Assembly (NCBI GenBank): GCA_030737835.1
Contig: CM060852.1
Coordinates: forward strand, 10,919,343 to 10,983,342
Reading direction: 5' to 3'
Length of the DNA stretch: 64,000 nucleotides
DNA from: Acorus gramineus
Lineage: Eukaryota > Streptophyta > Magnoliopsida > Acorales > Acoraceae
The notes below the pieces were generated by a model that did not search any database, was not told the DNA's origin, and saw only the letters and a list, made by a program, of their open reading frames with translations. The first letter of the stretch is position 1. Every line of letters begins with the position of its first letter. This document shows positions 14,444 to 49,537 of this stretch, one piece after another. The translations under genes and the position numbers were made by a program.

Positions 14444-16149
14444 ACCCTTTTTTTTAATAACAAGTGGTGTGAAAAAAACAGCTAGTTAGTCTCAAGTTTC
14501 AACATTCCCAGTTTTTAAATAGTTTTGGCCTGTACTTCATAGAATATAACTAAGCTTTATTTTGCAAAGCACATGATCTCTCTTGTGAAACTGATGGTTT
14601 TCTTTCCTTCTACACCGTGAAACACTGATATGAATTTATTGATGCTATGACACCCCATTTGGATACAAGTCCCAGCAAGTTCTACTGCAGTTCTATCTAC
14701 AACAGCCCGTCGTCCTCTCTACGACACACCCTCGCTTCAGTGTAAACCATCCCAGGCCGACAGAGGTACCCCTTCTCTGGCGCACAGTGCTCATCCCTCG
14801 AGCAAATGCAGAGCCCCTCAAGAGCACACCCCTTCTTGTCAACAGTCAGGGCCTTCCCGCGCAACCCCAACACCGCATCGCTCCAGTCGGAAGAGAACAA
14901 TCCTTCCGGGTCGTACTTCTCCATTGCCTTGACGAACAGGTCACCCTTCACCCCTAGCTTCTCCCTCATCCCTACAAATCCAACGTTCCGGTTCTTCCCC
15001 AGGTGAGGCATGCCTTTATATTTGAACAGCGCCATCTGCTCGATCTCCTCCAGTACGTCCTCGTCCAGCCGTGGATCAAGCGGGTCGTTGGACCGGTAGT
15101 ACGTGATGTCAATGTCCACCGAGTCGGCCGTCTTCCCCAAATAAGCGGTTGAGGCCTTGATGAACCTCATTAGAAAGCCAGAGTAGAGTTCGACACCGCA
15201 GAGGGAGTCATGGTTGATGTCTCTCAGTTTCTTTACATCGGAAATGAAGCTCGTGATGTTGGGCAATGGTATGCTCACGCTGGTCTGGTGGTAGAGCAAC
15301 CCATGAATCCGCCTGTCCCATTCGCATGCGGTGAGGAGGAGGTCATCCTTCCCATTCAGACATGACCCTGTGCACAAAATCATGATCAAACTAACTGATG
15401 TGATGTTGATGTGATATTATCATGCGGGTATACCTGAAGTTTGCATGTCACTTTGGTTACCGATCACCGGATATTCGGTGAAATCCAGTAGTCTTCCATC
15501 CCTGTTCTTGAGCCCGAAACCTGATGCAAGCAGAACAGTCACTTGCCCTTTCGACAACACGCATTTGCCGGATGGATTATGAGTCGCTTCCAACAACTCC
15601 TCTGTCACACCATATCAAACATTTGGTAATTCATTCATTAGAGCACATTATATGTAGTTAGTGATTCACAGTGAGTACCAGTGGTCCGGATGCCCTCAAT
15701 TATGAGGCGGGGCTGTGCCCGGAATCCGGTGAAATCGTTTAGGCCATTCCCTGTGGTGGTGATGGGAACTCTGAAGTCGTCGCGGAAGATGACCCTGCCT
15801 TGTGAAGGGTACCATGTGATGTCGCCGAATTCGGTCATTGATCCGAAGGCTGCAATTTGATTCTCGAAACCGTCGTCCCCCTCAACACGGTTTGTAATGG
15901 AGCGCTTGAACATTGGCTCTAGTTGCAGTGTCACCTGAAAGAGCAGTAAGTTTTATCTGTTAGCAAGCATTGTCTTCCAATCCTAATAACAAATTTGGGA
16001 TTCGGTGTGAATTTTATTCAGTACAGTTTCAATAGAGCAGGGTAAGTTTTTTTTTTCTTTTCTTTTGATGGGTAGCAAGGCAAAGTTAGTGCAGTTAGCA
16101 TTATGTTTATCCTTAGCATTAATGTTTATCCATGAACCATCCCCGGACT

Positions 16150-16381
16150 CATGGCGCATTGGCGCGGCGGTTGGGACACCTTTCCCCTTTAGGGGAGGAG
16201 TGAGGTTGGGTCCTCCTGTGAACGCAGGAAGAGAAAACATGTTGTTAGTCCCTTTAGGTACTGATGTATCTATGGACTCGCATGCCTAAGTTTCTGCAGC
16301 CATGTAGGGTGGGTTATTCAGAGGAGTCTTATGACTTGCACCCTCTGCTTGGATACATTGCTTTTCTATATATAAAAAAAA
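16150..16381 (+). mobile_element. tRNA-derived SINE-like element in intron 1 of copy A
   Basis: A box-A-like TGGCGCGGCGGTTGGG (16160-16175) and a box-B-like GGTTGGGTCC (16204-16213) stand at pol III promoter spacing. About 170 bp further on the sequence ends in TATAAAAAAAA. It lies 215 bp from exon 2. Orthologous copies lie in genes B and C, so the insertion predates the duplications. Target duplications were not found. Confidence 0.55.
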
Positions 16382-17024
16382 GATTATCCGTCAACCTGTG
16401 GATAGGTATTCAGATGCAGTCAGGCTGTGTCATCATCATTATAATCATAACACTTTGCAGATCTACTATGTAGTAAAAGCATTTAAATTTAGGATTACAG
16501 GCATACCTATCCCTGTAAACATAGGTAATTCTATACAAGTCCATTTGAAAGTTGTGGCGGATACACGAGTCCCTTAAAACTAACAAAAACCTAATTATCG
16601 TTATTGGGTTAAAATTTTATTCAAATTTAAAAGAATATTTTATCATCATGTAATTGTGCAAACACTATAATCTCCATAAATAATCATAAAAATAAATTAG
16701 TCTATGTAAATATTAAATTATTCTTATAAGACTTTTTATGTTTCTTTCATTTCTATTGAGGTATTGATTGAAAATGATTAAAAATTTGAGGATAAATTAA
16801 TCATTTCATGGTTATAAGTTAAATAGGATAGGCTGGATTATGATTAATTTTTGTTAAAACTAGAGATGTATATAGGTATTTATGAGTTTTTAAAGATTTG
16901 TGTGTTTGTCCTAACTTTGATAAGGATTTATATGAGATTACTCATGTAATGTTTTTAAACTCTTAAATTTATTGATAAATTTCCTATGTGAATGTTCATT
17001 TATTCAACATGGCCGAAATTTGTC

Positions 17025-17095
17025 CAACCCACGCATGGCGTGATTGTTAGGACACCCCCATCACAGGGGGGGTGCATGGTGGAAAGGACGAAAAG
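17025..17095 (+). mobile_element. Possible relic of the same SINE family
   Basis: CATGGCGTGATTGTTAGGAC followed by a C-rich/G-rich hairpin resembles the head of the SINE-like elements (CATGGCGCGGCGGTTGGGAC). Identical relics sit at about 27403-27473 and 38151-38221. It is weak evidence, based on one shared block. Confidence 0.3.
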
Positions 17096-17907
17096 GGCAA
17101 AAAAACATGGCTGAAATTTAAACCATGTTTTTATCAAAAGCTTAATCATTTCATGCCAGATCGGCCATGTGTATGGATTCATTATTTATATCTCTAACAA
17201 ACTGATGATGATGATAATGATAGTAAGAATTAAAGACCAACTTTATTTATTTATACATATAAATATTTGGATAATGCATAATTGAAATCCAACTATTTCT
17301 CATTAAATGCAGGTAGACAGGTAAGAAAACATCAACCAAGATATTCATTTATTTCTATTTTTTGTATGGTCCGTTGGTGGTTGCATCTTCCATGAACATT
17401 TAAAAACATAAAATCATTCATTGCATACAAGACCTAAACCTTCGGTTAATCAATTCCGTAAGAAAATTATCTCCAAGTACAACCTAACACCATTTAACAC
17501 CTTTGTCGATTACTTATTAATGTAAGGACTTGTTGTGAACCGATCTTACTTGTTATGCCAACCAAAAAGCAGAAGAGCTGATAGAATTAGTTACAAATAT
17601 ATACACCAATATTACACCTTATAAATTTACATAGGCATACAAGCTGCCTTCTTAATTATATTCACCAACTACTTAACAATTCTTCATATATATTTATACA
17701 ATACAATATATATATACACAAAGGGAAAACAAACCATATATGTGAATAATCTATAGATTCCGTGTATACATGTGATCTTATTTTTGTGTCTTCGGAGAGT
17801 TCTAACCACCGTTCAATCGCACCACAATCAAACAAAGCAGTTATCTGTATCAAAAAAGCTTATGTCATATCCAAATGAGAACAACGGTAGTGTTGATTGG
17901 ATGTGGC

Positions 17908-18412
17908 TAGGGCTGGTAAATGAATTGAGTAGCTCGGGCTCGGGTTCTGCTCCAGTTCGACTCGGTTAAAGCTCGCTCAGGCTCGTTCGATTAGACAAAC
18001 GAGTCGATCTTCAACAATTTTTAAAGTTCGGTTTGTAAACGAGCCGAGTCCGAGTCGAGCCGAATCCGAGTCTAGACGAGCTCATTTACTTAACAGAAAA
18101 AATGAGCCCGAACTTATGTTACTTTCACATGTATAAAGTATTGGGATTTGTGAAATGTAACTTTTCAAATATTAAACAAGATTTTTTTTTAGCTAAACGA
18201 GCCCGAACAAAGCCTTGATTCAAGCTTTGGCTTGACTTGTTTAACAAACGAGCCGAGACGAGCATCAACCGAACTTTTCACGAGCCCAATGAGCCGAGCT
18301 TGAATACAAAATGAAACTCATTCTCGAATAGAGCTCAAGCGGAGCCTGATATTAAACGAGCCGAGCCTGAGCAGATCAGAGCTCGGCTTGTTCGACTCGT
18401 TTACCACCCCTA
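17908..18412. mobile_element. hAT-like MITE in intron 1 of copy A
   Basis: Termini are TAGGGCTGGTAAA and TTTACCACCCCTA, with repeated GAGCCGAG/CTCGGCTC words inside. The flanks GATGTGGC (17900-17907) and GATGTGAC (18413-18420) form an 8-bp target duplication with one mismatch, which supports the hAT superfamily. There is no ORF. Confidence 0.8.
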
Positions 18413-18694
18413 GATGTGACCATAGCCTCACCCAATGTTTACATATAGTTTTCATTATTACATAATATATATTACAATATTTGTATTTTTTTTATTATAC
18501 AAATTTAAATTCATATTTATGTCGATTTTGTGTTACAAAATTAAAAAAAAAAAACTAAACTAAAAAAATTATAACAACATTTTTCAAAACCTAAGTTATA
18601 AAAACTATTATCACTCTCATGTCCAAACGAAGTCACAATATTTATCAATCTAGAGTAAATATTTTTTTTTTCTAAAAACAAATTAAAAATAAAA

Positions 18695-19542
18695 GGGAAA
18701 AATCGATCTAGCTCTATGAAAACTTATGAAAATTAGAAAAAGTCTCTGTAAAATTGACAAATCCCCTCAGGTCCTTATCTTATTAGATAATATTTATTTG
18801 ACCAGATATGTGGTTAACCCTAACCATGCATGGTAAATTATTGTTATACCCTTTTAAAATTTATTTTCTTTATTAGAAAAAATTTATATAACTCCCTGAA
18901 AACTTATGAAAATCGAAAAAAGTCCTTGTGAAATTAAAAAATCGTCTTAACTCCCTGAAATCTTCTAAAAATCGTAAAAAATCCATGTGATTATCTAAAA
19001 ATATATACTGATTTATTTAAATTTTATGAAACAAATTATAGTTTTATAGTCAAGGTGTTATATTTTTTATTGCTAGTAATTTTGAGTTAAGAATGTATTA
19101 TAGAATTTTGATTTGATTTTTAAATTGTTTTCTCTACTGATTTTGTAATGGAGTTAATGAAACTATAATTTTTTTTTGTTCAATCTCTATAATGAGATTG
19201 AGGAGGGAAAAATGTTGAAAAATGATTCAATTTTGTAGATCAAATTAAGGTTTGACGGATTTTTTTTTTTTTACAGATGAAGATGATATTTCAAGATATG
19301 AGGATATTGAAAATGACGAGGGTATTTTTGTCTTACAAAAGAACTAAATCTGATTTAATAAAGTTTGTAGGGAGTGAATCCAATTTTAATAAGTTTCTGA
19401 GGACTTATTTCAATATACTCTTGATCAGGGGATTAAATTCGTTAACCATATACACTTTGTGAGGATCTATGATGATTTTCTAATTTTAGAGAGACTTTTT
19501 ATGATTTGCAAAAGATTTGATAGAGTTAAAAAGATTTTTTCC
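18695..19542. mobile_element. Mutator-like TIR element next to exon 1 of copy A
   Basis: Inverted ends built on GGGAAAAATCGAT and GATTTTTTCC are flanked by AAAATAAAA on both sides (18686-18694 and 19543-19551), a 9-bp target duplication typical of Mutator-like elements. The right end lies 37 bp from the exon 1 donor. Internal lines repeat the theme AACTTATGAAAATCGAAAAA. There is no transposase ORF. The matching place in copy C (about 48735-48770) has no insertion. Confidence 0.75.
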
Positions 19543-20326
19543 AAAATAAAAACAAAACAAATTAAAAATAAAAACTTACTTGAGAGATAACCCCCAAGAC
19601 ACCAAGAGAAACCTTAGCCGCCAAGAGCTCCTCATCCCCCTCCACCAACCCCACCACCCTCGCATACTTACCATCACCACCAGCACTTGTACTCGGAACC
19701 ACTAACCTCACCCCGACGACGTACTCATGCACCGCCGGTCCCTTCCCACTCAACGAGCTCCCATGGGACCCAGTCCCGATCAACCCACCCAAAGTCATCC
19801 CCTCCCAAACGGCGAGTGAGGCAGAGCCAACCCGTTCTCCGCCGCCGCATCGATGAGCCCTCGAAGGGTAATCCCACCCCCTACAGTCATCCGAACCCTC
19901 AAAGGGTCCACGTCCATGACACTGTTTAGGTTTTCTGTGCTTATCACGAGCCCTTCCCCGTCCGGTCCGCCTGGGCACGACAGTTTGGGTATGCTGTGTG
20001 AGTACACGGTGACCACCTTCATGTGTTGCTTCTTTTGGGAGGCGTCGGAGATCACGGAGAGAAGCTCGGACTCGTCGGATGGGCGGGCGACGGAGGCGGC
20101 TTTACAGGTGGTTCTGTCTGGGTAGATGCCGTAGCCGTTGGTGACGATGCAGTTGACGTCGCCGGCGCTGCATGTCACGGTTGGGGGGGGAGGGCTCGCG
20201 TGGACAAGTGCTGATAGGGTTGTAAGTGTGAGGAGGAGATGAGACAAGTTGGTTTTCATGGTTAGGGTTTGTTGAGGTTTTGTATTGATATTGGTGTATA
20301 ATCTGTGTTTTTTTTTGAAAATTAGG

Positions 20327-24413: not shown

Positions 24414-25064
24414 TTAGTTTTATCTTTTCTTTCATTTCAAAGTTCTATCTTTGCGGGTAAATATAAATTAGTTTATGAATATATACCAATTTTTTCCATT
24501 CCCATATTGGACTTTTAGTTTAATCTTTTTTTCCACATCAAAGTTCTATCTTTGAAGGTAAATATTCTATTTTATAAATTGGAAAATTAAATTAGTTTAT
24601 GGATGTTACCAATTTTCTCATGATGTTTAATTTGTTTAATAGTACATTATCTATTACTTACTTATTAAAGGGAAAGTGACCCAGCTGCTTTTTCATTTTT
24701 ATTTTTTACTCTATTATAAATTTAGTAATTCCTTATATCCTATTTATTCAAAATTTAAGATTTCAAATTAGATTTATATAAATCATAAATATATATTTTA
24801 GATTTCAAAATCAGATTTAAGAAAAATCATATCAATATATTGAAATTTTATTAATAAAAAATTACATATATTATTAAATCTATCTCAATGAATTTTAAAA
24901 AAGTTTGTTATGTTATTTTTATTATAATTTGAAATAATATTACATGGTATTCAAAATTACTATATATGTTAAAATCATGAAATGAGATTTTTTGAATAGT
25001 TTAATATTCTATAAACATTTTATTGATGCTATGACACCCCATTTGTATACAAGTCCAGCAAGGG

Positions 25065-28000
25065 CTACAGCACTTCCATCTTCAACAGCCCGTCATCCTC
25101 TCTACGACACACCCTCGATTCAGTGTAAACCATCCCGGGCCGACAGAGGTACCCCTTCTCCGGCGCGCAGTGCTCGTCCCTCGAGCAAATACAGAGCCCC
25201 TCAAGAGCGCACCCCTTCTTCTCAACAGTCAGGGCCTTCCCGCGCAACCCCAACACCGCATCCGTCCAGTCGGAAGAGAACAATCCCTCCGGGTCGTACT
25301 TCTCCATCGCCTTGACGAACAGGTCCCCCTTCGCCCCGAGTTTCTCCCTCATCCCTACAAATCCAACGTTCCGGTTCTTCCCCAGGTGAGGCATGCCTTT
25401 ATATTTGAACAGCGCCATCTGCTCGATCTCCTCCAGTACGTCCTCGTCCAGCCGTGGATCAAGCGGGTCGTTGGACCGGTAGTACGTGATGTCAATGTCC
25501 ACCGAGTCGGCCGTCTTCCCCAAATAAGCGGTTGAGGCCTTGATGAACCTCATCAGGAAGCCAGAGTAGAGTTCGACGCCGCACAGGGAGTCACGGTTGA
25601 TGTCCCTCAGTTTCTTTACGTCGGAGATGAAGCTCGTGATGTTGGTTAATGGTATGCTCACGGTGGTCTGGTGGTAGCGCAACCCGTGGATCCGTCTGTC
25701 CCACCCGCACGCGGTGAGGAGGAGGTCATCCTTCCCGTTTAGACATGACCCTGTGCACAAAATCATGATCAAACTAACTGATGTGATGTTCATGTGATAT
25801 TATCATTCTGGCATACCTGAAGTTTGCATGTCGCTCTGGTTACCGATCACCGGATATCCGGTGAACTCCAATAAACTTCCATCCCTGTTCTTGAGCCCAA
25901 GACCTGATTCGAGCAGAACAGTCACTTGCCCTTTCGACAACACGCATTTGCCGGATGGATTATGAGTCGCTTCCAACAACTCCTCTGTCACACCATATCA
26001 AACATTTGGTAATTCATTCATTAGAGCACATTATATGTAGTTAGTGATTCACAGTGAGTACCAGTGGTTCGGATGCCCTCTATTATGAGGCGGGGCTGTG
26101 CCCGGAATCCGGTGAAGTCGTTCAGGCCAATCCCTTTGGTGGTGATGGGGACTCTGAAGTCGTCGCGGAAGACGACCCTGCCTTGTGAAGGGTACCATGT
26201 GATGTCGCCGAATTCGGTCATTGATCCGAAGGCTGCAATTTGATTCTCGAAACCGTCGTCCCCCTCAACGCGGTTTGTGATGGAGCGCTTGAACATCGGC
26301 TCTAGTTGCAGTGTCACCTGAAAGAGCAGTAAATTTTCTCTGTTAGCAAGCATTGTCTTCCAATCCTAATAACAAATTTGGGATTCGGTGTGGATTTTAT
26401 TCAGTACAGTTTCAATAGAGAAAGGTAAGTTTTTTTTTTCTTTTCTTTTGATGGGTAGCAAGGCAAAGTTAGTGCAGTTAGCATTATGTTTATCCTTAGC
26501 ATTAATGTTTATCCATGAACCATCCCCGGACTCATGGCGCGGCGATTGGGACACCTTCCCCCTTTAGGGGAGGAGTGAGGTTGAGTCCTGCTGTGAACGC
26601 AGGAAGAGAAAACATGTTGTTAGTCCCTTTAGGTACTGATGTATCTATGGACTCGCATGCCTAAGTTTCTGCAGCCATGTAGGGTGAGTTATTCAGAGGA
26701 GTCTTATGACTTGCACCCTATGCTCGGATACATTGCTTTTCTGTATATAAAAAAAAAGATTATCCGTCAACCTGTGGATAGGTATTCAGATGCAGTCAGG
26801 CTGTGTCATCATCGTTATAATCACAACACTTTGCAGATCTATGTAGTAAAAGCATTTAAATTTAGGGTTAAAAATATCTGCATCCTGTAAACATAGGTAA
26901 TTCTATACAAGTCCATTTGAAAGTTGTGGCGGATACACGAGTCCCTTAAAACTAACAAAAACCTAATTATCGTTATTGGGTTAAAATTTTATTCAAATTT
27001 AAAAGAATATTTTATCATCATGTAATTGTGCAAACACTATAATCTCCATAAATAATCATAAAAATAAATTAGTCTATGTAAATATTAAATTATTCTTATA
27101 AGACCTTTTATGTTTCTTTTATTTCCATTAAGGTATTGATTGAAAATGGTAAAAAATTTGAGCATAATTTAATAATTTCATGGTTATAGATTAAAGTTAA
27201 ATAGGATAGGCTGGATTATGATTAATTTTTGTTAAAACTAGAGATGTATATATGTATTTATGAGTTTTCAAAGATTTGTGTGTTTGTCTTAACTTTGATA
27301 AGGATTTATATGAGATTACTCATGTAATGTTTTTAAACTCTTAAATTTATTGATAAATTTCCTATGTGAATGTTCATTTATTCAACATGGCCGAAATTTG
27401 TCCAACCCACGCATGGCGTGATTGTTAGGACACCCCCATCACAGGGGGGGTGCATGGTGGAAAGGACGAAAAGGGCAAAAAAACATGGCTGAAATTTAAA
27501 CCATGTTTTTATCAAAAGCTTAATCATTTCATGCCAGATCGGCCATGTGTATGGATTCATTATTTATATCTCTAACAAACTGATGATGATGATAATGATA
27601 GTAAGAATTAAAGACCAACTTTATTTATTTATACATATAAATATTTGGATAATGCATAATTGAAATCCAACTATTTCTCATTAAATGCAGGTAGACAGGT
27701 AAGAAAACATCAACCAAGATATTCATTTATTTCTATTTTTTGTATGGTACGTTGGTCCATCTTCCATGAACATTTAAAAACATAAAATCATTCATTGCAT
27801 ACAAGACCTAAACCTTCGGTTAATCAATTCCGTAAGAAAATTATCTCCAAGTACAACCTAACACCATTTAACACCTTTGTCGATTACTTATTAATGTAAG
27901 GACTTGTTGTGAACCGATCTTACTTGTTATGCCAACCAAAAAGCAGAAGAGCTGATAGAATTAGTTACAAATATATACACCAATATTACACCTTATAAAT

Positions 28001-30651
28001 TTACATAGGCATACAAGCTGCCTTCTTAATTATATTCACCAACTACTTAACAATTCTTCATATATATTTATACAATACAATATATATATACACAAAGGGA
28101 AAACAAACCATATATGTGAATAATCTATAGATTCCGTGTATACATGTGATCTTATTTTTGTGTCTTCGGAGAGTTCTAACCACCGTTCAATCGCACCACA
28201 ATCAAACAAAGCAGTTATCTGTATCAAAAAAGCTTATGTCATATCCAAATGAGAACAACGGTAGTGTTGATTGGATGTGGCTAGGGCTGGTAAATGAATT
28301 GAGTAGCTCGGGCTCGGGTTCTGCTCCAGTTCGGTTCTGTTAAAGCTCGCTCAGACTCGTTCGATTAAACAAACGAGTCGAGCTTGAATAATTTTTAAAG
28401 CTCGGTTTGTAAACGAGCCGAGTCCGAGTCGAGCCGAATCCGAGTCTAGACGAGCTCATTTACTTAACAGAAAAAATGAGCCCGAACTTATGTTACTTTC
28501 ACATGTATAAAGTATTGGGATTTGTGAAATGTAACTTTTCAAATATTAAACAAGATTTTTTTTTAGCTAAACGAGCCCGAACAAAGCCTTGATTCAAGCT
28601 TTGGCTTGACTTGTTTAACAAACGAGCCGAGACGAGCATCAACCAAGCTTTTTACGAGTCCAACGAGCCGAGTTTCAACACAAAATGAAGCTCGTTCTCG
28701 AATAGAGCTCAAGCGGAGCCTGATATTAAACGAGCCGAGCCTGAGCAGATCAGAGCTCGGCTTGTTCGACTCGTTTACCACCCCTAGATGTGACCATAGC
28801 CTCACCCAATGTTTACATATAGTTTTCATTATTACATAATATATATTACAATATTTGTATTTTTTTTATTATACAAATTTAAATTCATATTTATGTCGAT
28901 TTTGTGTTACAAAATTAAAAAAAAAAAACTAAACTAAAAAAATTATAACAACAACATTTTTCAAAACCTAAGTTATAAAAACTATTATCACTCTCATGTC
29001 CAAACGAAGTCACAATATTTATCAATCTAGAGTAAATATTTTTTTTTTCTAAAAACAAATTAAAAATAAAAGGGAAAAATCGATCTAGCTCTATGAAAAC
29101 TTATGAAAATTAGAAAAAGTCTCTGTAAAATTGACAAATCCCCTCAGGTCCTTATCTTATTAGATAATATTTATTTTAGTCCATATAACTAACCAGATAT
29201 GTGGTTAACCCTAACCATGCATGGTAAATTATTGTTATACCCTTTTAAAATTTATTTTCTTTATTAGAAAAAATTTATATAACTCCCTGAAAACTTATGA
29301 AAATCGAAAAAAGTCCTTGTGAAATTAAAAAATCGTCTTAACTCCCTGAAATCTTCTAAAAATCGTAAAAAATCCATGTGAATATCTAAAAATATATACT
29401 GATTTATTTAAATTTTATGAAACAAATTATAGTTTTATAGTCAACGTGTTATGCTTTTTATTGGTAGTAATTGAGTTAAGAATGTATTATAGAATTTTGA
29501 TTTGATTTTTAAATTGTTTTCTCTACTGATTTTGTAATGGAGTTAATGAAACTATAATTTTTTTTTGTTCAATCTCTATAATGAGATTGAGGAGGGAAAA
29601 ATGTTGAAAAATGATTCAATTTTGTAGATCAAATTAAGGTTTGACGGATTTTTTTTTTTTTTTACAGATGAAGATGATATTTCAAGATATGAGGATATTG
29701 AAAATGACGAGGGTATTTTTGTCTTACAAAAGAACTAAATCTGATTTTATAAAGTTTGTAAGGACTGAATCCAATTCTAGTAAGTTTCTGAGGACTTATT
29801 TCAATATACTCTTGATCAGGGGATTAAATTCGTTAACCATATACACTTTGTGAGGATCTATGATGATTTTCTAATTTTAGAGAGACTTTTTATGATTTGC
29901 AAAAGATTTGATAGAGTTAAAAAGATTTTTTCCAAAATAAAAACAAAACAAATTAAAAATAAAAACTTACTTGAGAGATAACCCCCAAGACACCAAGAGA
30001 AACCTTAGCCGCCAAGAGCTCCTCATCCCCCTCCACCAACCCCACCACCCTCGCATACTTACCATCACCACCAGCACTTGTACTCGGAACCACTAACCTC
30101 ACCCCGACGACGTACTCATGCACCGCCGGTCCCTTCCCACTCAACGAGCTCCCATGGGACCCAGTCCCGATCAACCCACCCAAAGTCATCCCCTCCCAAT
30201 ACGGCGAGTGAGGCAGAGCCAACCCGTTCTCCGCCGCCGCATCGATGAGCCCTCGAAGGGTAATCCCACCCCCTACAGTCATCCGAACCCTCAAAGGGTC
30301 CACGTCCATGACACTGTTTAGGTTTTCTGTGCTTATCACGAGCCCTTCCCCGTCCGGTCCGCCTGGGCACGACAGTTTGGGTATGCTGTGTGAGTACACG
30401 GTGACCACCTTCATGTGTTGCTTCTTTTGGGAGGCGTCGGAGACCACGGAGAGGAGCTCGGACTCGTCGGCCGGGCGGGCGACGGAGGCGGCTTTACAGG
30501 TGGTTCTGTCTGGGTAGATGCCGTAGCCGTTGGTGACGATGCAGTTGACGTCGCCGGCGCTGCATGTCACGGTTGGGGGGGGAGGGCTCGCGTGGACAAG
30601 TGCTGATAGGGTTGTAAGTGTGAGGAGGAGATGAGACAAGTTGGTTTTCAT
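25065..30651 (-). CDS. GULLO: L-gulonolactone oxidase-like secreted FAD oxidase, copy B
   Basis: Four exons, 30651-29971, 26317-26062, 25984-25817 and 25750-25065, give an uninterrupted 596-aa protein, close to the usual GulLO length. Order: signal peptide (MKTNLSHLLLTLTTLSALVHA), FAD-binding domain with [14 protein letters not shown] (its His aligns with the flavin-linking His region of animal GULO) and [15 protein letters not shown], then the ALO domain (exons 2-4) and a Cys-rich tail (GCALEGLCICSRDEHCAPEK). Family role: oxidation of L-gulono-1,4-lactone toward ascorbate in the secretory or apoplastic route; activity of plant members is low and specific. The C-terminal motif reads PHLGKNRN where Arabidopsis GulLOs have PHWGKNRN. 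Exons 2-4 are nearly identical to copy C and exon 1 to copy A, so the gene is a recombinant. It is the best candidate for an expressed member of the array. Confidence 0.93.
26531..26758 (+). mobile_element. SINE-like element in intron 1 of copy B
   Basis: Counterpart of 16150-16381, with box-A-like TGGCGCGGCGATTGGG, box-B-like GGTTGAGTCC and an A-rich 3' end at 26750-26758. Confidence 0.55.
28282..28786. mobile_element. hAT-like MITE in intron 1 of copy B
   Basis: Counterpart of the copy A element at the same intron position, with the same termini and flanks GATGTGGC and GATGTGAC. It is the same length (505 bp) with scattered substitutions. Confidence 0.8.
29072..29933. mobile_element. Mutator-like TIR element in intron 1 of copy B
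   Basis: Counterpart of 18695-19542, with AAAATAAAA on both sides. It carries a short insertion (about 29174-29190) relative to copy A. Confidence 0.75.
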
Positions 30652-30702
30652 GGTTAGGGTTTGTTGAGGTTTTGTATTGATATTGGTGTATAATCTGTGT
30701 TC

Positions 30703-30735
<33 letters not shown>

Positions 30736-32298
30736 GGGTTTAGTGAGAAGGATTGGCTTCCATGGAAGTAAGCTGGGAAGTGGTGGAAGGGGTCTGTCTT
30801 TTTATATGTCATTGACCAACATATATCTATACTGTATATAATTATTATATTATGTTAGAAAGTTATTTTATTTTAGTTTTTATATGTGTTTTTTTATGGT
30901 AACTGTTGAAACAGTTTTTTTTTTCATTTGAATTTGTGTCAGTGATTTGAATATCATTTCATCTTTTCAAAGTGATTTGTAGCTTTGTTTTAAACTGTTT
31001 TTGGTTATTAAACGGTTGTGAACTGTTTTGTTTCTCTGGGAGTGCTTTGGCACCTCTTGTAATAAAATATATGGGGCAGGGATGTTGGACAGAGAAGATA
31101 TTATATTATACAAACCAGTCCGTCTAACACACAGAAAAAAGAAATCAGAGAGCACCTACAGTGAGTCCGTCCTAGACAACATTGAAATTAAAATCATAGA
31201 AAGATGTCTCCTATTCTTAAAGACTTACAGTTGTTCACTAAAACATCTTTTCAGTTAGAATGCACCTTAAGAAGGATCAGAGACTAAAATCACTTCAGAA
31301 TGGACCGTCATTGAACCATTGCATCAAAGTAGGACGGAATCTGTTTTTCAGAAAGATTTTTGCGTGCTTCAATCCATTAAATTTTTTAAATTTTTTTAAC
31401 TCTATATTTAATTCTAATTTTGTTGTGATTTTCAAAATTAAAAAATTTAGTGTTTTTCCGACATATTACATTCTAATGCACCACGGTACGTCCAAAAATC
31501 ACCCCACCACCGAACTAAAAATTACACACTGTACATTACAATGCGTCCAAATTTCTCTTATATGATTTAGTAATCGATTTCTCATTTCTTCGTATATCGG
31601 TTTTAGTTTCAGATTTAAAGGATATGTTCTTTGTAGTCTTGCACAATGATTAAAAAAGAAAATCAAATAATTTAGGGATAGGTCTCTCCCAGGAACTAAT
31701 GAGAAACATACCCTTCGAGTTTAAAAACTAAAATTGAAATATGAAAAAATGAGAGATCGATCACTAAATTATATAGTTTACAAGGACTAAAAAATAAAAA
31801 ACCCTTTCTTTCTTTCTTTTTTTTTTTTTTTTGATACTGGAATTTTTTGTTGGGGGCGTTCTCGCTTGGACGTGTTTTTGGTGCAGAAATTTTTTGGGTC
31901 TGGGTGTTCTTGGTTGGAGGTATTTTTGGTGCAAGAATTTTTTTTAATGCATATCTTTTGCCGGCATTGTTGATGAAACACACGGATTCTTTGCCTGGCT
32001 TTTAAGTTCTATTGAGCTTTGTTGTTCTTCATGTTTTTACTTGAAATTCATAAGATGATCCAATTCATTAAATAATTACTCAATATAATTTATTAAATAT
32101 GACTCATATCATCACTTTATAAGAAACGTGTAAGTCTTTTTTATAATGACAAAAGCTGGGTGGATATAATTTTTATCTTAGTAGGTCTTATGCCATTCAT
32201 GTGTTTCATTTGACCAGGAAACAATGATAAATCGATTTATTGGAATTTAGCTTCTTATTTTTATAATTCCAAAAGCTGGGTGAATAGAATTTTTATAA

Positions 32299-32574
32299 GG
32301 GTTTTTTATTTTTAAGTCCCCGTAAACTATATGATTTAGTGATCGATTCCTCATTTCTTCATATTTCGGTTTAAGTTTCCGGATTTATTAAATATGTTCA
32401 TTTTAGTCCTTTCAGGGGACTAAAAAGAAAATCAAATAATTTAGTGATAGGTTCCTCCCAGGGATTAATAAGAAACATACCCTTTAAATCTAGGGACTTA
32501 AATTGAAATATGAAGAAGTGAGGGATCGATCACTAAATCATATAGTTTAGAGGGGTTAAAAAAATAAAAAACCC
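32299..32574. mobile_element. Mutator-like MITE, TTTTTAAGTCC family, unit B
   Basis: Counterpart of 22190-22464. The left flank TTTTTATAA (32290-32298) is kept. The right flank has drifted into a T-run. Confidence 0.7.
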
Positions 32575-33723: not shown

Positions 33724-33957
33724 CACTACAAGAAATCAGGGTTTTAGCGACGCTTATTACCGACGGCTGTAATAAAACCGTCGCTAATATGAATGCAGAA
33801 GATGGATTCTTTATCTACGCGGAGCATTACCGACGGTCAACGTCGCTAATACAGTTTTAGCGACGGCTAGAATCTGGCCGTCGCTAATAGTGTGGTTTAA
33901 CAAACCACTTACCACGAATTTTTTTTTTTTTTTACACAAACCTAAGCCGAAAGCCGA
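33724..33957. mobile_element. CACTA transposon end fragment
   Basis: It starts with CACTACAAGAAATCAGGG, the classic plant CACTA terminus, followed by repeats of TTAGCGACGG and ACCGACGG in both orientations, as in CACTA subterminal regions. No TTTCTTGTAGTG right end is present, so this is a fragment. Unit A lacks it at the matching place (about 23606-23637), so it arrived after the A/B duplication or was lost from A. Confidence 0.75.
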
Positions 33958-34745: not shown

Positions 34746-35847
34746 TTAGTTTTATCTTTTCTTTCATTTCAAAGTTCTATCTTTGCGGGTAAATATAAAT
34801 TAGTTTATGAATATATACCAATTTTTTCCATTCCCATATTGGACTTTTAGTTTAATCTTTTTTTCCACATCAAAGTTCTATCTTTGAAGGTAAATATTCT
34901 ATTTTATAAATTGGAAAATTAAATTAGTTTATGGATGTTACCAATTTTCTCATGATGTTTAATTTGTTTAATAGTACATTATCTATTACTTATTTATTAA
35001 AGGGAAAGTGACCCAGCTGCTTTTTCATTTTTAGTTTTTACTCTATTATAAATTTAGTAATTCCTTATATCCTATTTATTCAAAATTTAAGATTTCAAAT
35101 TAGATTTATATAAATCATAAATATATATTTTAGATTTCAAAATCAGATTTAAGAAAAATCATATCACTATATTGAAATTTTATTAATAAAAAATTACATA
35201 TATTATTAAATCTATCTCAATGAATTTTAAAAAAGTTTGTTATGTTATTTTTATTATAATTTGAAATAATATTACATGGTATTCAAAATTACTATATATG
35301 TTAAAATCATGAAATGAGATTTTTCAATAGTTTAATATTCTATAAACATTTCATATAGTTACGAATAATATAATATAGAAGCACATAGAAATATGTATTT
35401 ATTATTTTATTTAATCATTATTAAATTTTAACATTTTTTGTTATATTATTTACATATACCACGAATCTCAACCCTTTTTTTTAATAACAAGTGGTGTGAA
35501 AAAAACAGCTAGTTAGTCTCAAGTTTCAACATTCCCAGTTTTTAAATAGTTCTGGCCAGTACTTCATATATATATATATGTGTGTGTGTGTTAAAGAGTC
35601 ATTATTAGGATAATATTATATTTTTATTGTCATTATTGTGATATTATTAGTTTTATATAATATAAGTAAGCTTTATTTTGCAAAGCACATGATCTCTCTT
35701 GTGACTGCAAAGTTTTGAGAATCAAATAAAATCCCAGCAATTCTCACTTGTACAAAACTGACGGTTTTCTTTCTTTCTACACCTTGAAACACTGATACGA
35801 ATTTATTGATGCTATGACACCCCATTTATATACAAGTCCAGCAAGGG

Positions 35848-38800
35848 CTACAGCACTTCCATCTTCAACAGCCCGTCATCCTCTCTACGACACACCCTCG
35901 ATTCAGTGTAAACCATCCCGGGCCGACAGAGGTACCCCTTCTCCGGCGCGCAGTGCTCGTCCCTCGAGCAAATACAGAGCCCCTCAAGAGCGCACCCCTT
36001 CTTCTCAACAGTCAGGGCCTTCCCGCGCAACCCCAACACCGCATCCGTCCAGTCGGAAGAGAACAATCCCTCCGGGTCGTACTTCTCCATCGCCTTGACG
36101 AACAGGTCCCCCTTCGCCCCGAGTTTCTCCCTCATCCCTACAAATCCAACGTTCCGGTTCTTCCCCAGGTGAGGCATGCCTTTATATTTGAACAGCGCCA
36201 TCTGCTCGATCTCCTCCAGTACGTCCTCGTCCAGCCGTGGATCAAGCGGGTCGTTGGACCGGTAGTACGTGATGTCAATGTCCACCGAGTCGGCCGTCTT
36301 CCCCAAATAAGCGGTTGAGGCCTTGATGAACCTCATCAGGAAGCCAGAGTAGAGTTCGACGCCGCACAGGGAGTCACGGTTGATGTCCCTCAGTTTCTTT
36401 ACGTCGGAGATGAAGCTCGTGATGTTGGTTAATGGTATGCTCACGGTGGTCTGGTGGTAGCGCAACCCGTGGATCCGTCTGTCCCACCCGCACACGGTGA
36501 GGAGGAGGTCATCCTTCCCGTTTAGACATGACCCTGTGCACAAAATCATGATCAAACTAACTAATGTGATGTTCATGTGATATTATCATTCTGGCATACC
36601 TGAAGTTTGCATGTCGCTCTGGTTACCGATCACCGGATATCCGGTGAACTCCAATAAACTTCCATCCCTGTTCTTGAGCCCAAGACCTGATTCGAGCAGA
36701 ATAGTCACTTGCCCTGTCGACAACACGCATTTGCCGGACGGATTATGAGTTGCCTCCAACAACTCCTCTGTCACACCATATCAAACATTTGTTATTTCAT
36801 TCATTAGAGCACATTATATATAGTTAGTGATTCACAGTGAGTACCAGTGGTTCGGATGCCCTCTATTATGAGGCGGGGCTGTGCCCGGAATCCGGTGAAG
36901 TCGTTCAGGCCAATCCCTTTGGTGGTGATGGGGACTCTGAAGTCGTCGCGGAAGACGACCCTGCCTTGTGAAGGGTACCATGTGATGTCGCCGAATTCGG
37001 TCATTGATCCGAAGGCTGCAATTTGATTCTCGAAACCGTCGTCCCCCTCAACGCGGTTTGTGATGGAGCGCTTGAACATCGGCTCTAGTTGAAGTGTCAC
37101 CTGAAAGAGCAGTAAATTTTATCTGTTAGCAAGCATTGTCTTCCAATCCTAATAACAAATTTGGGATTCGGTGTGGATTTTATTCAGTACAGTTTCAATA
37201 GAGCAGGGTAAGTTTTTTTTTTCTTTTCTTTTGATGGGTAGCAAGGCAAAGTTAGTGCAGTTAGCATTATGTTTATCCATGAACCATCCCCGGACTCATG
37301 GCGCGGCGGTTGGGACACCTTCCCTTAAAACTAAGTTGGGTACTGAGTGAGGTTGAGTCCTGCTGTGAACGCAGGAAGAGAAAACATGTTGTTAGTCCCT
37401 TTAGGTACTGATGTATTTATGGACTCGCATGCCTAAGTTTCTGCAGCCATGTAGGGTGAGTTATTCAGGTGACTTGCACCCTATGCTCGGATACATTGCT
37501 TTTCTGTATATAAAAAAAAAGATTATCCGTCAACCTGTGGATAGGTATTCAGATGCAGTCAGGCTGTGTCATCATCGTTATAATCACAACACTTTGCAGA
37601 TCTATGTAGTAAAAGCATTTAAATTTAGGATTAAAGTCACCTGTATCCCAGTAAACATAGGTAACCTATACAAATTTATTTAAAGGTGTGGCGGATACAC
37701 GAGTCCTTTAAAACTAACAAAAATCTAATTATCGTTATTGGATTAGAATTTTATTCAAATTTAAAAGAATATTTTATCACCATGTAATTGTGCAAACACT
37801 ATAATCTCCATAAATAATCATAAAAATAAATTAGTCCATACAAAAATTAAATTATTCTTGTAAGACTTTTTATGTTTCTTTCATTTCCATTGAGGTATTG
37901 ATTGAAAATGGTAAAAAATTTGAGCATAATTTAATAATTTCATGGTTATAGGTTAAAGTTAAATAGGATAAGTTGGGTTATGATTAATTTTTGTTAAAAC
38001 TAAGGATGTATATAGGTATTTATGAGTTTTTAAAAATTTGTACGTTTGTTCAAACTTTAATAAGGAATACTTGGATGTTTTTAAACTCTTAAATTTATTG
38101 ATAAATTTCCTATGTGAATGTTCATTTATTCAACATGGCCGAAATTTGTCCAACCCACGCATGGCGTGATTGTTAGGACACCCCCATCACAGGGGGGGTG
38201 CATGGTGGAAAGGACGAAAAGGGCAAAAAAACATGGCTGAAATTTAAACCATGTTTTTATCAAAAGCTTAATCATTTCATGCCAGATCGGCCATGTGTAT
38301 GGATTCATTATTTATATCTCTAACAAACTGATGATGATGATAATGATAGTAAGAATTAAAGACCAACTTTATTTATTTATACATATCTATTCTATACTAC
38401 TTATAAAAGCACCAATCCTAGAAAAACTTTCATTTGACAATCTTACCCTTCACATTTTGTGAAACCCCATCATTGTCCCGAATGCATTCTTTACCCTCAC
38501 TCCATCCGTCTCTTCGTCTTTGCTCCACGCCCTTTCATCTTCTCATCGTCCCCTCGCCATTCAATCAATTAATATCAATCAATTAATTATTATTTAATTT
38601 TTATTCAATGTAAAATTGTTCCCTGAGTTCTGGGCTTTCATGGATTCTGATATATTTTTTTAGGGTGTCTATGTTTGTTATAGCCATTGACAGCTGTAAG
38701 CAGAAACTCGGGACGACGGAGGTCATCACCTGTATGGGCGATCGGACCAAGAAGAGATGTAGAGCGAAGGTCTGCTTCTCAAGGTGTTCATGCCCATCAA

Positions 38801-41800
38801 GCACGGCACATCTTCCGAGACGGAGGAGGAGGAGTGATCGATTAGAAGTACCCCGAATAGGTCACCGTAAAAGTAGTATCAAAATCACCGAACGTCGTTC
38901 TCTTGTGACTAGGCTTTTTTTACGAGCTCTGTGAATTCATAATTTTTTTTTTCTTATTATTTCTTGCATATAGATTCCCCTTTCAATCTATACTACCACT
39001 GGCCCTTAGAGAATTATCGTGAAGGATGATATTGAAGAACATTTGGGTATGTTATTTTTTCTTTAATGTTTAGTTGCAAACGGAAAGAATTCATATTTTT
39101 ATGTGATGAAAAATGATTGCTTCTATTGTCTACCTCTGGTCTCATCAGTAAGTGCCAGAATGTTGAATAAGCACTCGATTATGTTTTCCTTCATTTCAGG
39201 TTACACATTGAACTATTATTGATTAGATTATTGGTGTTCTATGGCATCAACATCGTTGAACTATTATTTCATTGCCCACAATATTCTGATTTTCTAAGAT
39301 TTTAACCACAAGGTGAAACTATGAATTCAATTGTTCATTTCATGGTTTAGCCATTTGATGAATGCTTTTCACCACCACCATCATTTTTTGGGAAACCATT
39401 TTCCATACTCTTGTTGAATAAGTTTAAAAATATTTTTTTCCAGTATTTTGTTTTGGCTCTGTATTCTGCAAAGTCATTAACATCATCTTATTATGAATTA
39501 GTTTTTCCAGTTACAGACATTGATTTCTATTGACACAATCAATACAATTTCTAATCAGAAGTGGACTTTCCCTCTAACAGGCCAATTTGTTAACCTGAGT
39601 GCATGAGAACATCTACCTTAACCATGGTATTTATAGATTAATTTTTTTGACGGAGCATCTTATCTTACATGCTGAAGTGATCCCATATATTTGCTTGTGC
39701 ACTTTCATAGGCGTTGTGCATTAATAAATAATTCATTGTTGTGCTATCTGTGTAAGTGATACATATGAAGAATTAGTATATTCTTTATTTCTTATATTGA
39801 TTGTTGGGAGAGTCGATATTGTTTCATTGGCTCATTTACATCAACAACCAAGAACATTGGTCTTCATTACAATCTACAAAGTCTTTCCCTTGTAGTTCCC
39901 TTTATCTGTCGAGTTTTTCAAAGCAATATATCATGTTGTTGATGCCCCCTTGATAAAAGAAAGATTCAATCACATTAGAGGTATAAGAATATTTTAGATA
40001 AAGATTAATATTATTTATAATATAATGAAAAAATATTGATATGAGCCTGTGCTATTGTTTTTTGAATTTTTTGATGGAAGGAAGAACACTGAATTTGCAC
40101 CATGAAAGCAGTAAAAATTTGAGCTTTTTGCTTATTTACTGTCGAGTGGTCCACGTTAATCCAATATAACACATCCATCTATTATAGGTATCTATTAATG
40201 TTGAGGTAGCTTGCATATTGGTATTTGGTAGTCTTATATTATTTAGGGTTTTTTGTATGTATACCATAAAAAAATATGATATTTATTTTTATACCACCAC
40301 AAAAAATTAAATAGCATGTTTTTGAATGGTATACATGCAAAAAAACCCTATTATTTATATGGATAATGTTATGTACAACCCCTTTTTCAGCTCTAATTCA
40401 GTTCACGGATGTTTTGATTGTTTAAAAAATTATTTTTTTGTGGGGGCTCACAAGACTTAAACAGAAAACTTAAAATGTTCATTTTTTTAATTAAATAATA
40501 GATTTTATGTTTTCTAATAGATGTTATGGTTGCTTTGGAAGCTTTAATAGCTTGAGAAGTTTTGACACTTATATCCTTCACAATTTCTTAAATTACTTCG
40601 TTGTCCCGGTGAATCCCCTCAACTTCTTCATTCATAGATTGCGTCGTTTCACTCCAACAAAACCCTAACCGCACATGGCACTTACATAAGCGATCATTCC
40701 CTAAAAAAACATCATTAAATCACATGCAAATGAATTAGAGAAGGCCAATCGTTTTATGTTTTCATTATTGTCCACCACACAAGCATTCAAAGATAGAGAG
40801 AAAGAGATGTCAATGGGTTTCTTGAGCAACCCATCCATCTGCCCAAACCACCTTCAAAATCAAAACCTCACCAACAAGCACTCCCACATCAAGACAAAAC
40901 CTTGTCAATAAGTAGAGCTTCCTCTCTTTGCCACCAATTCGAGCCTTTGAATCCTGACGGCAGCGGCGGTGAAACGGACGGTGGCACTTACATAAGTGAT
41001 AGCCCTCGTGGGTTGGCAACCAAGTCCATATGTTCATTATTGAAATAAAGTCACTGTAAGGAATTAAAAGATGGGCATCTACAATTGAGATTCATTTTTT
41101 TCCTTTTTGTGGTGTTTGTTATGCTTGTTTATAGGTGTATGAGTGGGGTTCATGTGCTTTCTATTGATGAACTATTTTGAATGTCAGAATCATACATTTT
41201 GTCTTTTTTTTTTGTTGACTAGATCAATATCACAACATTTCAGTAGTGCCTCAAAAGGAGACATGACTGAGTATTTTGAATTGAAGGTAAAAAAAATTTG
41301 GTTTGTAATTGTTGAATTCGGTTCCTATTTTTTGTAGGTTTGGTTAACTGATGCTTTATAGTGATTGTGGCGGTGAGTGGTGGATCCACTTTGCAATTCT
41401 AAGTTGGATATGGATTAGATTTAGATTATTATGCATATGTGATCATAAAAATAAGAAGCTTTATATATGTCATTATCTAATATGTAACACTTAAAAATCT
41501 GGTTTAAAAGATAGATATGAACAAAATTATTTAGTTTTAAATTTTATTTATTAATGCATGACTGGTTGTTTAAGATGATTTTGGTCATTTCTTATTGGTG
41601 ATATTGGGTTCCGTAAGCCAAATCAATTAGAGAGTATAAATAGCAAAAAAGAAAGGACTTTGAAAGACTTAACATTTATTTGTTTATTTTTTTCTATCAT
41701 TGGAATCAGATTCATGCGATCCTGAGATCTTGATCGATCTAGGCAACGAGGAGGAGAGGTATAGCAACTGAGTCAGAAGCCGGTCGATGTTTTAGTGTTG

Positions 41801-44800
41801 CTTCAAGTACAGCGTATGGTTTACTTTCATCTGTTTTTTTTTTTAAAAAAAACATATCATAGTCAGCTTTAAATCTCACATGGGTCTATTGATTTTAAGG
41901 ATCTCTTCTTTTCTGCATGTGGGTTTATACATAATGTGAGGAGGATGAGAGTTGAGTAACCAAAAACTTTGGTTTTGGCAACGATGCAGAGCAGTACAAT
42001 GTCAACTTCAAGCTGATGGTGAATTTTTTGATCGACTTGTGAAATGCCCGATGCAAGTCTCTTCTGTTGATTGTAAGCTTTTTAATGATCTCTTTTGGTC
42101 CTATTCCTGTTTGTTGACGGAACTGTTGTTTTTGTTTTGATTGGGGTGTAAAATGCTGACATAAAAGTTTCATATTCTGAATTTTTATAAGCACATTTTT
42201 AAGTAAGGAACCAATCTGGCGATCTAGATTTAGTGACAGTAGAATGGGTAGAGACTTTGTTAAGAATCACCTCCAAGAGATGCTTATCACATACTACTTA
42301 TTATCACTTCTCGTTCCCCTGGTTGGTTGGTTCATAGCTTGTTCAGACTTAGAATATTCAGAAGAGAATTAAATGATTGTTAGGTTGATTGTTATTCTTT
42401 TCTTTGTCTGGATATATTTTCTCTTCTACATTTCAATATAATTATAGTTTTGGATATATATCAATGTCACGTAGACATCCATTAGAGTTTATTTTAATCT
42501 ATTAGGGCGCACTATTCTAATTCTTTGAACATAACTATTACAATTTGGTTGTCATTTTTTAGTGTTTTGAGCTTTCTTGTGATGAATTGGGTCATTGTGA
42601 ATTGTATTAGGTATCGTAGAGGCAGTGGAGCAGGATCAATGAGAAGATGAAAATGTTGGAGAAACTTATCTCGAATTTAATGGAGGCAGACTACGGTGAA
42701 AATTTGATTTTGAAGAGATTCTTTTGTATTTTTTTTTTTTTTTTTTGGCTACTGAACTTCTTTTTTGAATGCTATGTGTGGCAGACAGGCAAGGGATTGA
42801 TGGTGAGGCGATTGAGTATCATAAGCAGTTTCATCTCCAAGTTCAAGTAACATCTCATGTACAGTTGTTCATGCTTTCATCTTTGTGCCAGGTTTTTCAA
42901 TGTTTTGTCTCAAATGTGTATACTCCAACCCACTTTGACGTTCAGTGTGTCAATGGATCTATTGAAACTTAGAAGGTTTTGGGCTTGCTATGTTTGAAAA
43001 TTTAGAACTTTCAAAAGAATTTTTTTCATCTATCTGTGTTTTGGCTTATCTTTTGTTTTTTACGTGGGTTATTTTACATTGACTACTTTCAAAAATTCAA
43101 AATTTTCTGTTTATCTATTATCCCTAATGAATAATCAATAGTCTTCGTGTTGCACCCCCAAAACTTTACCAAGAAAAAAAAAATTCTCTCCTTTTGAAAT
43201 GATGTGTCATTTGACATGAAATCTGTCTTTTCCAATTGATGAACTGTTTATTTGTTTTATCTTCTCCCTTCATTTTGATTATTTTCATAGTCTTGTTCTT
43301 TGAAATCATCAGTCATTGCTCTGATTTCATAGTTACATACTTACATCCGAAGTTGACTTTTCTCCAAATTTTATTAAGTGTGTCTATGTCCTACCCTCCT
43401 TTAATAGTTTGCCATTAAAAAAAAAACACCCAACATCGTTTTTACCATAAAAGATCTAGAGTTATCTATCTTGAGAAAAAAAAATTCAGGTTTTTTAAAT
43501 AGATAACTTAGTGTTCCTTTGCAGGAATAAAAATTTATGTTAAGAAGAAAATAAACAATATTTCAATAATCAACTAAAAGGCCAAACAGTCAGATAATTA
43601 AAAGTAAATTCGGATACATTGGTTTTGCTGGAGGGTCAGGAACCTCATCGACTTCCATAATGCTTGTTGATCCTTTTTATTCTTCAAAAGTCGTGCTCTC
43701 TTACTTTTCTTATTCGAGGCTATATTGAATAGTTTGAATTTTTACTTGAGTTTCATGCTTATACATGTTCAAAAGTTTTAAACTCTTTTCAGTCGTTTTC
43801 GGGATTGAAATTGGCTAAATTTTGAACCAAATCAGGTTTTAATTTGGATATCACATTGTTGCAATGAAACTGGATTGTTTCTTGAAACTTCAGTTGATGT
43901 ATTTTTTGAAAGGTTACTTAAATTTTAAGTCCTATCCTTCATGCAAAACATGAAGAGTGGATATTTAGCACTAGGTTGCTTGGATTTGACCTTTAAACCT
44001 TGCTAGAATAACATTCTGGCTATTGATAAATGATAATTGAGTCAATTTAAAATTGGTCTAACATGGTTGAGGACTAGATTGTATGGGTTTATATTTTATC
44101 ATGCTTTTCGTGTTCCAACATCACATGTTTATGTGTTTCTGTCTTTACTTTACATGTTTCTTTATCACTATCTGCATTGATATTTCAAAGAATCCCATTG
44201 GTTGTTGTTTTGATTTTGTTTTACATAGAAATGTATGTGATTCATTTGATTTAAAGTGGTAGAGTTCCTACAGCTTTTTAAAAAATAAGGTTCATTGAAC
44301 TTTTGATTGACTAATAAGTTCCACTCATCTCAATTGTTTCAATGATGTTAGGTGTCAGCATATCAACTATTAAAGTTTTGTTTTTGTTTTTCCTTTTGTA
44401 TTTTAGAAAAGAACAAGGGGCAACGAGCAACATTGCTGCGTACTCCATAGTTTTCTGTTCTGTAAATGAAATATATACCTATAAGTTGAAGAAGTTTTCT
44501 TTAATGTTTTTGAGTAGTAATTTGTGGGTTTTAATACAATTGGGCATATATGAATTCTGATGGTTATTTTATATTTTTGCAATCTCAAATTGTTCTATTA
44601 TAGTCTTATAGATTCTGCTTTGTTTTCACCAACCTTTCTTGAAAATTTTACTGTATTCAAGTATTCATAAAGACCTTTTCAAAAACTTTTTTCATGTTTA
44701 ACGTTTTTCATTGATCTACAATCATCTTTGTAATGAATTGGTTTTATGCTTTTGTTTATGAAATAGATGTTTATTATCACTTCTTTTGAGTAATGGATGT

Positions 44801-49466: not shown

Positions 49467-49537
49467 GGTTAGGGTTTGTTGAGGTTTTGTATTGATATTA
49501 GTGTATAAACTGTGTTATATATATATATATATATATA

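What the first reader, a model, noticed from the sequence alone, without database searches (positions are those of the whole stretch)
25065..30651. GULLO copy B is a mosaic made by unequal crossing-over between A-type and C-type genes
Exons 2-4 of B carry the C-type states (CGWDRRIHGLRYHQTT, TKGIGLNDF, SGLGLKNRDGSLLEF), against A's CEWDRRIHGLLYHQTS, TTGNGLNDF and SGFGLKNRDGRLLDF. Exon 1 of B differs from A by only two residues before the frameshift. Within intron 1 the affinity switches from C-like (to about 26850) to A-like (about 26885-27100), back to C-like (about 27110-27200), then A-like. In genome order the middle gene has the C-type left part and A-type right part, exactly what misaligned exchange between the two outer genes gives. 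The patchwork adds gene conversion.
Basis: partly seen in the sequence, partly recalled or inferred. Interest (0 to 1): 0.75.

Follow-up and report, generated by a model that had tools for sequence, protein, structure and literature searches.

The report
Hybrid gene born from misaligned crossover
In a tandem cluster of plant GULLO (sugar-lactone oxidase) genes, the middle gene is an intact hybrid with one neighbour's front half and the other neighbour's back half, and a second copy of the region, probably the other parental chromosome, has only the two outer genes; this is a clear case of a well-known process.

Summary
The mosaic is real. The window's own genome holds a second copy of this region 107 kb to the left, probably the other haplotype. 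It has two genes (A1, C1); the window has three (A2, B, C2). At 103 scored sites where A1=A2 differs from C1=C2, B is C-type at 64 and A-type at 39. One switch between 26743 and 26877, in intron 1, explains all but four, and BIC prefers one breakpoint. Left of it B differs from C by 0.75-1.5%, like C1 from C2; in 27987-30651 B differs from A by 1.3-2.8%, like A1 from A2. This is what unequal crossing-over predicts.

Corrections: the "C-like patch" at 27110-27200 and B's two exon-1 differences from A are states that A1 shares, so no conversion from C is needed. B lacks about 450 bp of 3' flank that A and C keep, so a later deletion, or a duplication-plus-conversion history, must be considered. 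C's exon 1 appears to come from an older, fused gene. B, C1 and C2 are open; A carries a frameshift on both copies. A misassembled contig is unlikely but not excluded without reads.

The parts
29971..30651 (-). B exon 1 (A-type, without A's frameshift)
   Evidence: 24 of 24 scored fixed A/C sites from 29971 on are A-type
26062..26317 (-). B exon 2 (C-type)
25817..25984 (-). B exon 3 (C-type)
25065..25750 (-). B exon 4 (C-type)
26743..26877 (.). Breakpoint interval in intron 1: last C-type fixed site 26743, first A-type fixed site 26877
   Evidence: one-breakpoint model has the lowest BIC (44.3; none 141.3; two 47.0)
25020..25021 (.). Junction of the A2-B spacer with B's 3' end; about 450 bp of 3' flank present at C is missing; B is C-type from the first scored fixed site (25046) on
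35352..35801 (.). 3' flank of C2; parts of it (35463-35576 and 35742-35801) are shared with A2's flank (14435-14548, 14577-14637), and C1 has it too; absent at B
14682..20259 (-). A2: exons 20259-19580, 15934-15679, 15601-15434, 15367-14682; 1-bp deletion after 19808 shared with A1
35848..49466 (-). C2: exons 49466-48771, 37100-36845, 36767-36600, 36533-35848; open, 601 aa
46255..46375 (-). Decoy exon-2 fragment in intron 1 of C (also in C1), 86.8% to B exon 2, with a stop codon and AA in place of the acceptor AG
38387..45986 (.). About 7.6-kb insertion in intron 1 of C2, absent from C1
30652..35351 (.). Spacer between B and C2 (with B's 5' region), a homologue of the A2-B spacer

Best explanation
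B arose by unequal (non-allelic homologous) crossing-over in an array that held only A and C. C on one chromosome paired with A on another, and a single exchange fell in intron 1, between the positions now at 26743 and 26877. The product reads A - spacer - [C left half / A right half = B] - spacer - C. B therefore has an A-type upstream region and FAD-binding exon 1, and C-type exons 2-4 (ALO part and C-terminal domain). Because A and C share exon layout and splice phase, the hybrid is open. A deletion of about 450 bp removed B's 3' flank at some time. Shown: the single switch, the near-allelic distance of each half of the gene to its parent, and a two-gene copy of the region. Inferred: that the two copies of the region are alleles, that the event was a crossover and not a long conversion, and that the two-gene state came first.
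For: A second copy of the region (C6:10812732-10865064) carries A1 and C1 and no B. It meets the window's contig as a dovetail: its right end and the window's left end both lie exactly at N gaps of 10,000 bases (3 of 3 gaps in the 300 kb examined have that length), and 24.8 kb of the 34-kb contig placed between them is a 98% inverted copy of sequence further right. That is what unpurged alleles look like. Fixed A/C sites: one breakpoint is the best model. Distances in 25021-26743: B-C1 0.75%, B-C2 1.53%, C1-C2 1.47%, A1-A2 1.51%, A-C 4.9-6.0%. In 27987-30651: A2-B 1.29%, A1-B 2.79%, A1-A2 2.63%. dS is similar for the two halves: 0.016 (B to C1 and to C2, exons 2-4) and 0.012-0.030 (B to A2 and A1, exon 1). 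B is C-type from the first scored fixed site, 25 bp from the end of homology. Polarised by two C3 paralogues: 11 sites derived in B+C1+C2 and 0 in A1+A2+B for exons 2-4; 0 and 8 for exon 1.
Against: B lacks the 450-bp 3' flank, which the crossover alone does not explain. The B-C2 spacer differs from the other two spacers by 4.6-4.8%, against 2.6% between those two, and 122 sites set B apart against 64 and 39 for the other two patterns, so it is deeper than the A1-A2 difference, and patchy. In 26877-27986 A and C are barely differentiated (9 fixed sites in 1010 columns, against 68 in 1694 to the left), and there B-C1 (3.6%) is smaller than C1-C2 (6.2%), so the right side of the switch rests on 8 scored sites there and on exon 1, where C seems to carry a fused gene's exon. 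AU tests on exons alone do not reject other placements. A1 and C2 are identical over 224 bp (27019-27242), so exchange among copies has probably happened more than once.
Confidence: 0.62

Rival explanations
1. Tandem duplication by end-joining made B as a whole copy of A (junction 25020|25021, without the flank); later a long conversion from C rewrote B from the junction to about 26.8 kb.
For: It explains the missing 3' flank with one event: the junction joins the spacer end to the start of A's homology with only a few shared T/A bases. A2-B homology covers most of the 10.3-kb unit.
Against: The conversion tract would have to be at least 1.7 kb long and end within 25 bp of the end of homology (first scored fixed C site 25046). 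The two halves of B show similar dS to their parents, which would be coincidence.
Confidence: 0.18
2. B is old; conversion from both neighbours homogenised its left half with C and its right half with A, and the haplotype with A1 and C1 lost B.
For: The B-C2 spacer is nearly as divergent from the other spacers (4.6-4.8%) as A is from C in the 3' half (4.9-6.0%); A2-B divergence is patchy.
Against: It needs two long tracts meeting at one point plus a loss of B that leaves C1's flank and an A2-like spacer in place.
Confidence: 0.08
3. B is not the recombinant: A's left half was replaced by an unsampled divergent copy, and C's right half was replaced through fusion with an older gene, leaving B as the unaltered type.
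For: C's right part does look like a fusion. A and C are hardly differentiated in 26877-27986. More changes in exons 2-4 polarise to A1+A2 (28) than to B+C1+C2 (11).
Against: It needs an unsampled donor, while both parents of a hybrid B are present on both copies of the region. A is a pseudogene, which can explain an excess of changes.
Confidence: 0.07
4. Assembly artefact: the contig joins C of one haplotype to A of another.
For: The assembly keeps overlapping contigs, and in one place three copies of a stretch are present, so more than two haplotypes, or mosaic contigs, are possible.
Against: B's halves differ from every sampled copy (B-C1 13/1723, B-C2 26/1695; A2-B 34/2645, A1-B 73/2621), which in a diploid with an accurate assembly leaves no haplotype to be joined. 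B has its own flank deletion. The longest exact A-C match that overlaps the breakpoint interval is 61-74 bp, depending on the pair, short for a long-read overlap (the sequencing method is not known to me).
Confidence: 0.05

Closest known systems
Unequal crossing-over (non-allelic homologous recombination) between neighbouring paralogues, as reviewed in PMC3449122 (passages seen)
   Same: Direct repeats close together, one more copy, a hybrid in the middle; the review says that such exchange gives a duplication and a deletion product
   Different: Here the two-gene and three-gene arrays seem to be held in one assembly, and the hybrid lacks part of its 3' flank
Haemoglobin Lepore/anti-Lepore and red-green opsin hybrid genes (recalled, no call)
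   Same: Hybrid gene from misaligned neighbours; the duplication product keeps both parents with the hybrid between them, as in anti-Lepore
   Different: Plant GULLO genes; no phenotype known; the exchange was not observed
Plant GULLO / L-gulonolactone oxidase-like family (Pfam FAD_binding_4, ALO, GULLO2-like_3rd)
   Same: All three domains are found in B's exon-1 and exon-4 reading frames; four-exon gene, 596 aa
   Different: Nothing unusual seen in the protein; the gene's origin is what stands out

Membership tests
GULLO-type oxidase | FAD_binding_4, ALO and GULLO2-like_3rd domains | tested here: met
   61.4, 34.0 and 83.1 bits in B's exon-1 and exon-4 reading frames; cut-offs 26.4, 23.1 and 27
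GULLO-type oxidase | Open reading frame across all exons with GT-AG introns | tested here: met
   B, C1 and C2 are open; A1 and A2 fail by frameshift
GULLO-type oxidase | Oxidation of L-gulono-1,4-lactone | not testable with these tools
   needs an enzyme assay
Hybrid gene from unequal crossing-over | A single switch of parental type along the hybrid | tested here: met
   one breakpoint best by BIC, 4 exceptional sites; at 25933 and 26309 both outgroups carry the A=B state, 25919 is ambiguous, 25780 is intronic
Hybrid gene from unequal crossing-over | Type order as expected from array order (right parent's left part, left parent's right part) | tested here: met
Hybrid gene from unequal crossing-over | Each half, with its outer flank, at allelic distance from its parent | tested here: inconclusive
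   Met within the gene; not met for the 3' flank (450 bp missing), and the right spacer is deeper than the A1-A2 difference
Hybrid gene from unequal crossing-over | A two-gene array without the hybrid exists | tested here: met
   that it is allelic is inferred from the contig dovetail
Gene-conversion patchwork from C in intron 1 | The patch at 27110-27200 matches C and no A copy | tested here: not met
   6 of 6 B=C substitutions at 27126-27174 are shared by A1

The most novel reading that the evidence does not exclude
A single plant is heterozygous for the product of a recent unequal crossover. One chromosome has a dead A and one working gene (C); the other has a dead A, the working hybrid B and C. 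B keeps an A-type upstream region and first exon in working order while A itself has decayed on both chromosomes, so the crossover has kept an A-type front half alive in a new gene.
Probability: 0.4. Interest if true: 0.5.

Novelty: new member of a known kind. Interest (0 to 1): 0.38.

Why it matters
Hybrids made by unequal crossing-over are often inferred from one haplotype. Here what look like the two-gene and three-gene arrays lie in one assembly, so parental types can be told from allelic variation site by site and the exchange narrowed to about 133 bp. It also shows a trap: a window-only reading takes allelic variation in one parent for gene conversion. For GULLO biology it gives a copy-number difference, one or two open genes per chromosome, that could be tested.

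Tried and rejected
Gene conversion from C as the source of the patch at 27110-27200: rejected, A1 carries the same states. Exon 1 of B as a partly C-type patch at 30444-30472: rejected, A1 has the same states and A2 alone differs. Rooting by the C3 paralogues to force a verdict from trees: too distant (dS to one of them, Oa, 0.6-1.1); AU tests on exons do not decide. The ends of the two C3 paralogues' first and last exons were extended by coordinates, not by evidence of their true ends. A true segmental duplication instead of two haplotypes: not excluded, but the ends lie at contig gaps and neighbouring contigs overlap in the same manner. An attempt to count copies of a flank in the whole genome did not complete. 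The one whole-genome search for the gene itself scores best candidates only, so further copies could exist. Papers: in what searches (12 of 17 papers listed; 4 of 4; 10 of 379) listed, by title and start of abstract, I saw no report of this locus; one search returned no paper. I saw passages only of PMC3449122 and PMC6191929, the latter without use for the argument.
Full report
What is there. Three GULLO-type genes lie in tandem on the minus strand of the window: A (20259-14682), B (30651-25065) and C (49466-35848), each with four coding exons. Pfam finds the FAD-binding domain in B's exon-1 frame, and the ALO domain and the GULLO2-like C-terminal domain in its exon-4 frame. B codes for 596 aa and C for 601 aa without an internal stop; A has a 1-bp deletion in exon 1. 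The A-B repeat unit is about 10.3 kb and includes the spacer.

The observation.

New evidence: a second copy of the region. The window's genome (398.6 Mb, 137 contigs) holds another copy of the region at C6:10812732-10865064, 98.2-99.3% identical to C6:10919343-10992296 in the long matches outside the array. It has two of these genes, which I call A1 and C1; the window's are A2, B and C2. The second copy ends, and the window begins, exactly at gaps of 10,000 N; 3 of 3 gaps in the 300 kb examined have that length, and 24.8 kb of the 34-kb contig between the two copies is 98% identical, inverted, to sequence further right. I read this as overlapping contigs of two haplotypes that were not purged. 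That is inference; I could not count the flanks in the whole genome because the tool did not complete. In one stretch three contigs overlap, so the sample may hold more than two haplotypes or mosaic contigs.

Parental states. At 105 ungapped sites in the compared blocks (B 25015-27990 and 29939-30715) A1=A2 differs from C1=C2. B has a third state at 2; of the other 103, 64 are C-type and 39 A-type in 8 runs, and none of 200,000 shuffles had so few (minimum 28). In the span of exons 2-4 there are 60 C and 4 A; from 29971 on, 0 C and 24 A. A segmentation by likelihood with BIC prefers one breakpoint, between 26743 and 26877 (BIC 44.3; none 141.3; two 47.0). Of the four exceptional A-type sites on the left, two (25933, 26309) carry the state of both outgroup paralogues, which suggests that C1 and C2 changed there after B split off; 25919 is ambiguous, and 25780 lies in an intron without outgroup. 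The other B=A sites seen on the left in the window-only comparison are not fixed between the A and C copies.

The alleged patchwork. At the B=C block 27126-27174, A1 has B's state at 6 of 6 substitutions. The two exon-1 residues by which B differs from A are A2's own (A1 agrees with B and C). No conversion from C to B is needed. Exchange among copies is probably not absent, though: A1 and C2 are identical over 27019-27242, and A2-B divergence is patchy along the unit.

Distances. In 25021-26743: B-C1 0.75%, B-C2 1.53%, C1-C2 1.47%, A1-A2 1.51%, A-C 4.9-6.0%. In 26877-27986: A2-B 1.7%, A1-B 2.7%, A1-A2 2.9%, B-C1 3.6%, B-C2 6.2%, C1-C2 6.2%. In 27987-30651: A2-B 1.29%, A1-B 2.79%, A1-A2 2.63%. 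In the spacer 30652-35351: A1-A2 2.61%, A1-B 4.81%, A2-B 4.63%. So within the gene B behaves as a third allele of C on the left and of A on the right, while the spacer is deeper. dS agrees: B-C 0.016 in exons 2-4, and B-A 0.012 (A2) and 0.030 (A1) in exon 1.

Trees. With two paralogues from C3 as outgroup (about 80% identical), the best trees put B with C1/C2 for exons 2-4 and with A for exon 1, at modest support; AU tests on three fixed topologies do not reject the alternatives in either part (P 0.10-0.19). The outgroup is far away, and the two splits are compatible on an unrooted tree of the five copies; the conflict lies in where B joins the path from A to C. Polarised sites do conflict: 11 derived in B+C1+C2 and 0 in A1+A2+B for exons 2-4, against 0 and 8 for exon 1.

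The missing flank. C has a 3' flank of which parts are shared by A; B does not have it: the spacer joins B 44 bp beyond its stop codon. Either B lost about 450 bp, or B began as an end-joined copy of A whose left half was later converted by C. In the second case the conversion tract must be at least 1.7 kb and must end within 25 bp of the end of homology. I think this less likely; that such tracts are mostly shorter in plants is recalled knowledge, not tested here.

C looks like a hybrid itself. Right of about 46240 (C2) and 10840560 (C1), C's intron 1 carries a decoy fragment of exon 2 (121 bp, 86.8% to B, with a stop codon and AA in place of the acceptor AG) and then intron sequence of which 0.6 kb aligns to A and B at only 68%. 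I infer that C's exon 1 comes from an older neighbouring gene fused to C's 3' half; against a simple form of this, exon 1 of C is only 4-7% different from A and B (dS 0.08-0.10), less than the intron would suggest. Exon 1 of C is therefore a doubtful stand-in for the original 5' half of the C-type gene; the switch inside 26743-27986 is free of this problem, but there only 8 scored sites carry the signal, and A and C are little differentiated (9 fixed in 1010 columns).

Conclusion. B is a C-left/A-right hybrid; a single unequal crossover is the best account (0.62). The kind of event is well known. What is unusual is to see what appear to be the two-gene and three-gene arrays side by side in one assembly.

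Noticed in passing
C6:10812732-10865064, a copy of C6:10919343-10992296 (window 1 to beyond its right end): A second copy of the whole region without B, ending at 10,000-N gaps; probably an unpurged haplotype.
   Followed up: partly
46255-46375, and its C1 counterpart at C6:10840560-10840680 (L012): Decoy exon-2 fragment in C's intron 1, broken, on both copies; C seems to be a fusion of two older genes.
   Followed up: partly
19808 (A2) and the same place in A1: A is a pseudogene on both copies by a shared 1-bp deletion in exon 1; A1 has a second 1-bp deletion in exon 4.
   Followed up: yes
38387-45986: About 7.6-kb insertion in C2, absent from C1, with ends that resemble a Helitron (recalled motif); the short sequence TACATAT stands on both sides.
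   Followed up: partly
49530-50685: About 1.15-kb insertion upstream of C2 with inverted repeats of about 175 bp (49522-49698, 50502-50676), seemingly absent from C1.
   Followed up: no
C6:10875065-10909342: A 34-kb contig placed between the two copies; 24.8 kb of it is an inverted 98% copy of C6:11046889-11071602; likely a misplaced haplotype contig.
   Followed up: partly
C3:18114510-18137208: A second GULLO cluster, about 80% identical to these genes: two copies in which all four exons match and one that matched only in part.
   Followed up: partly
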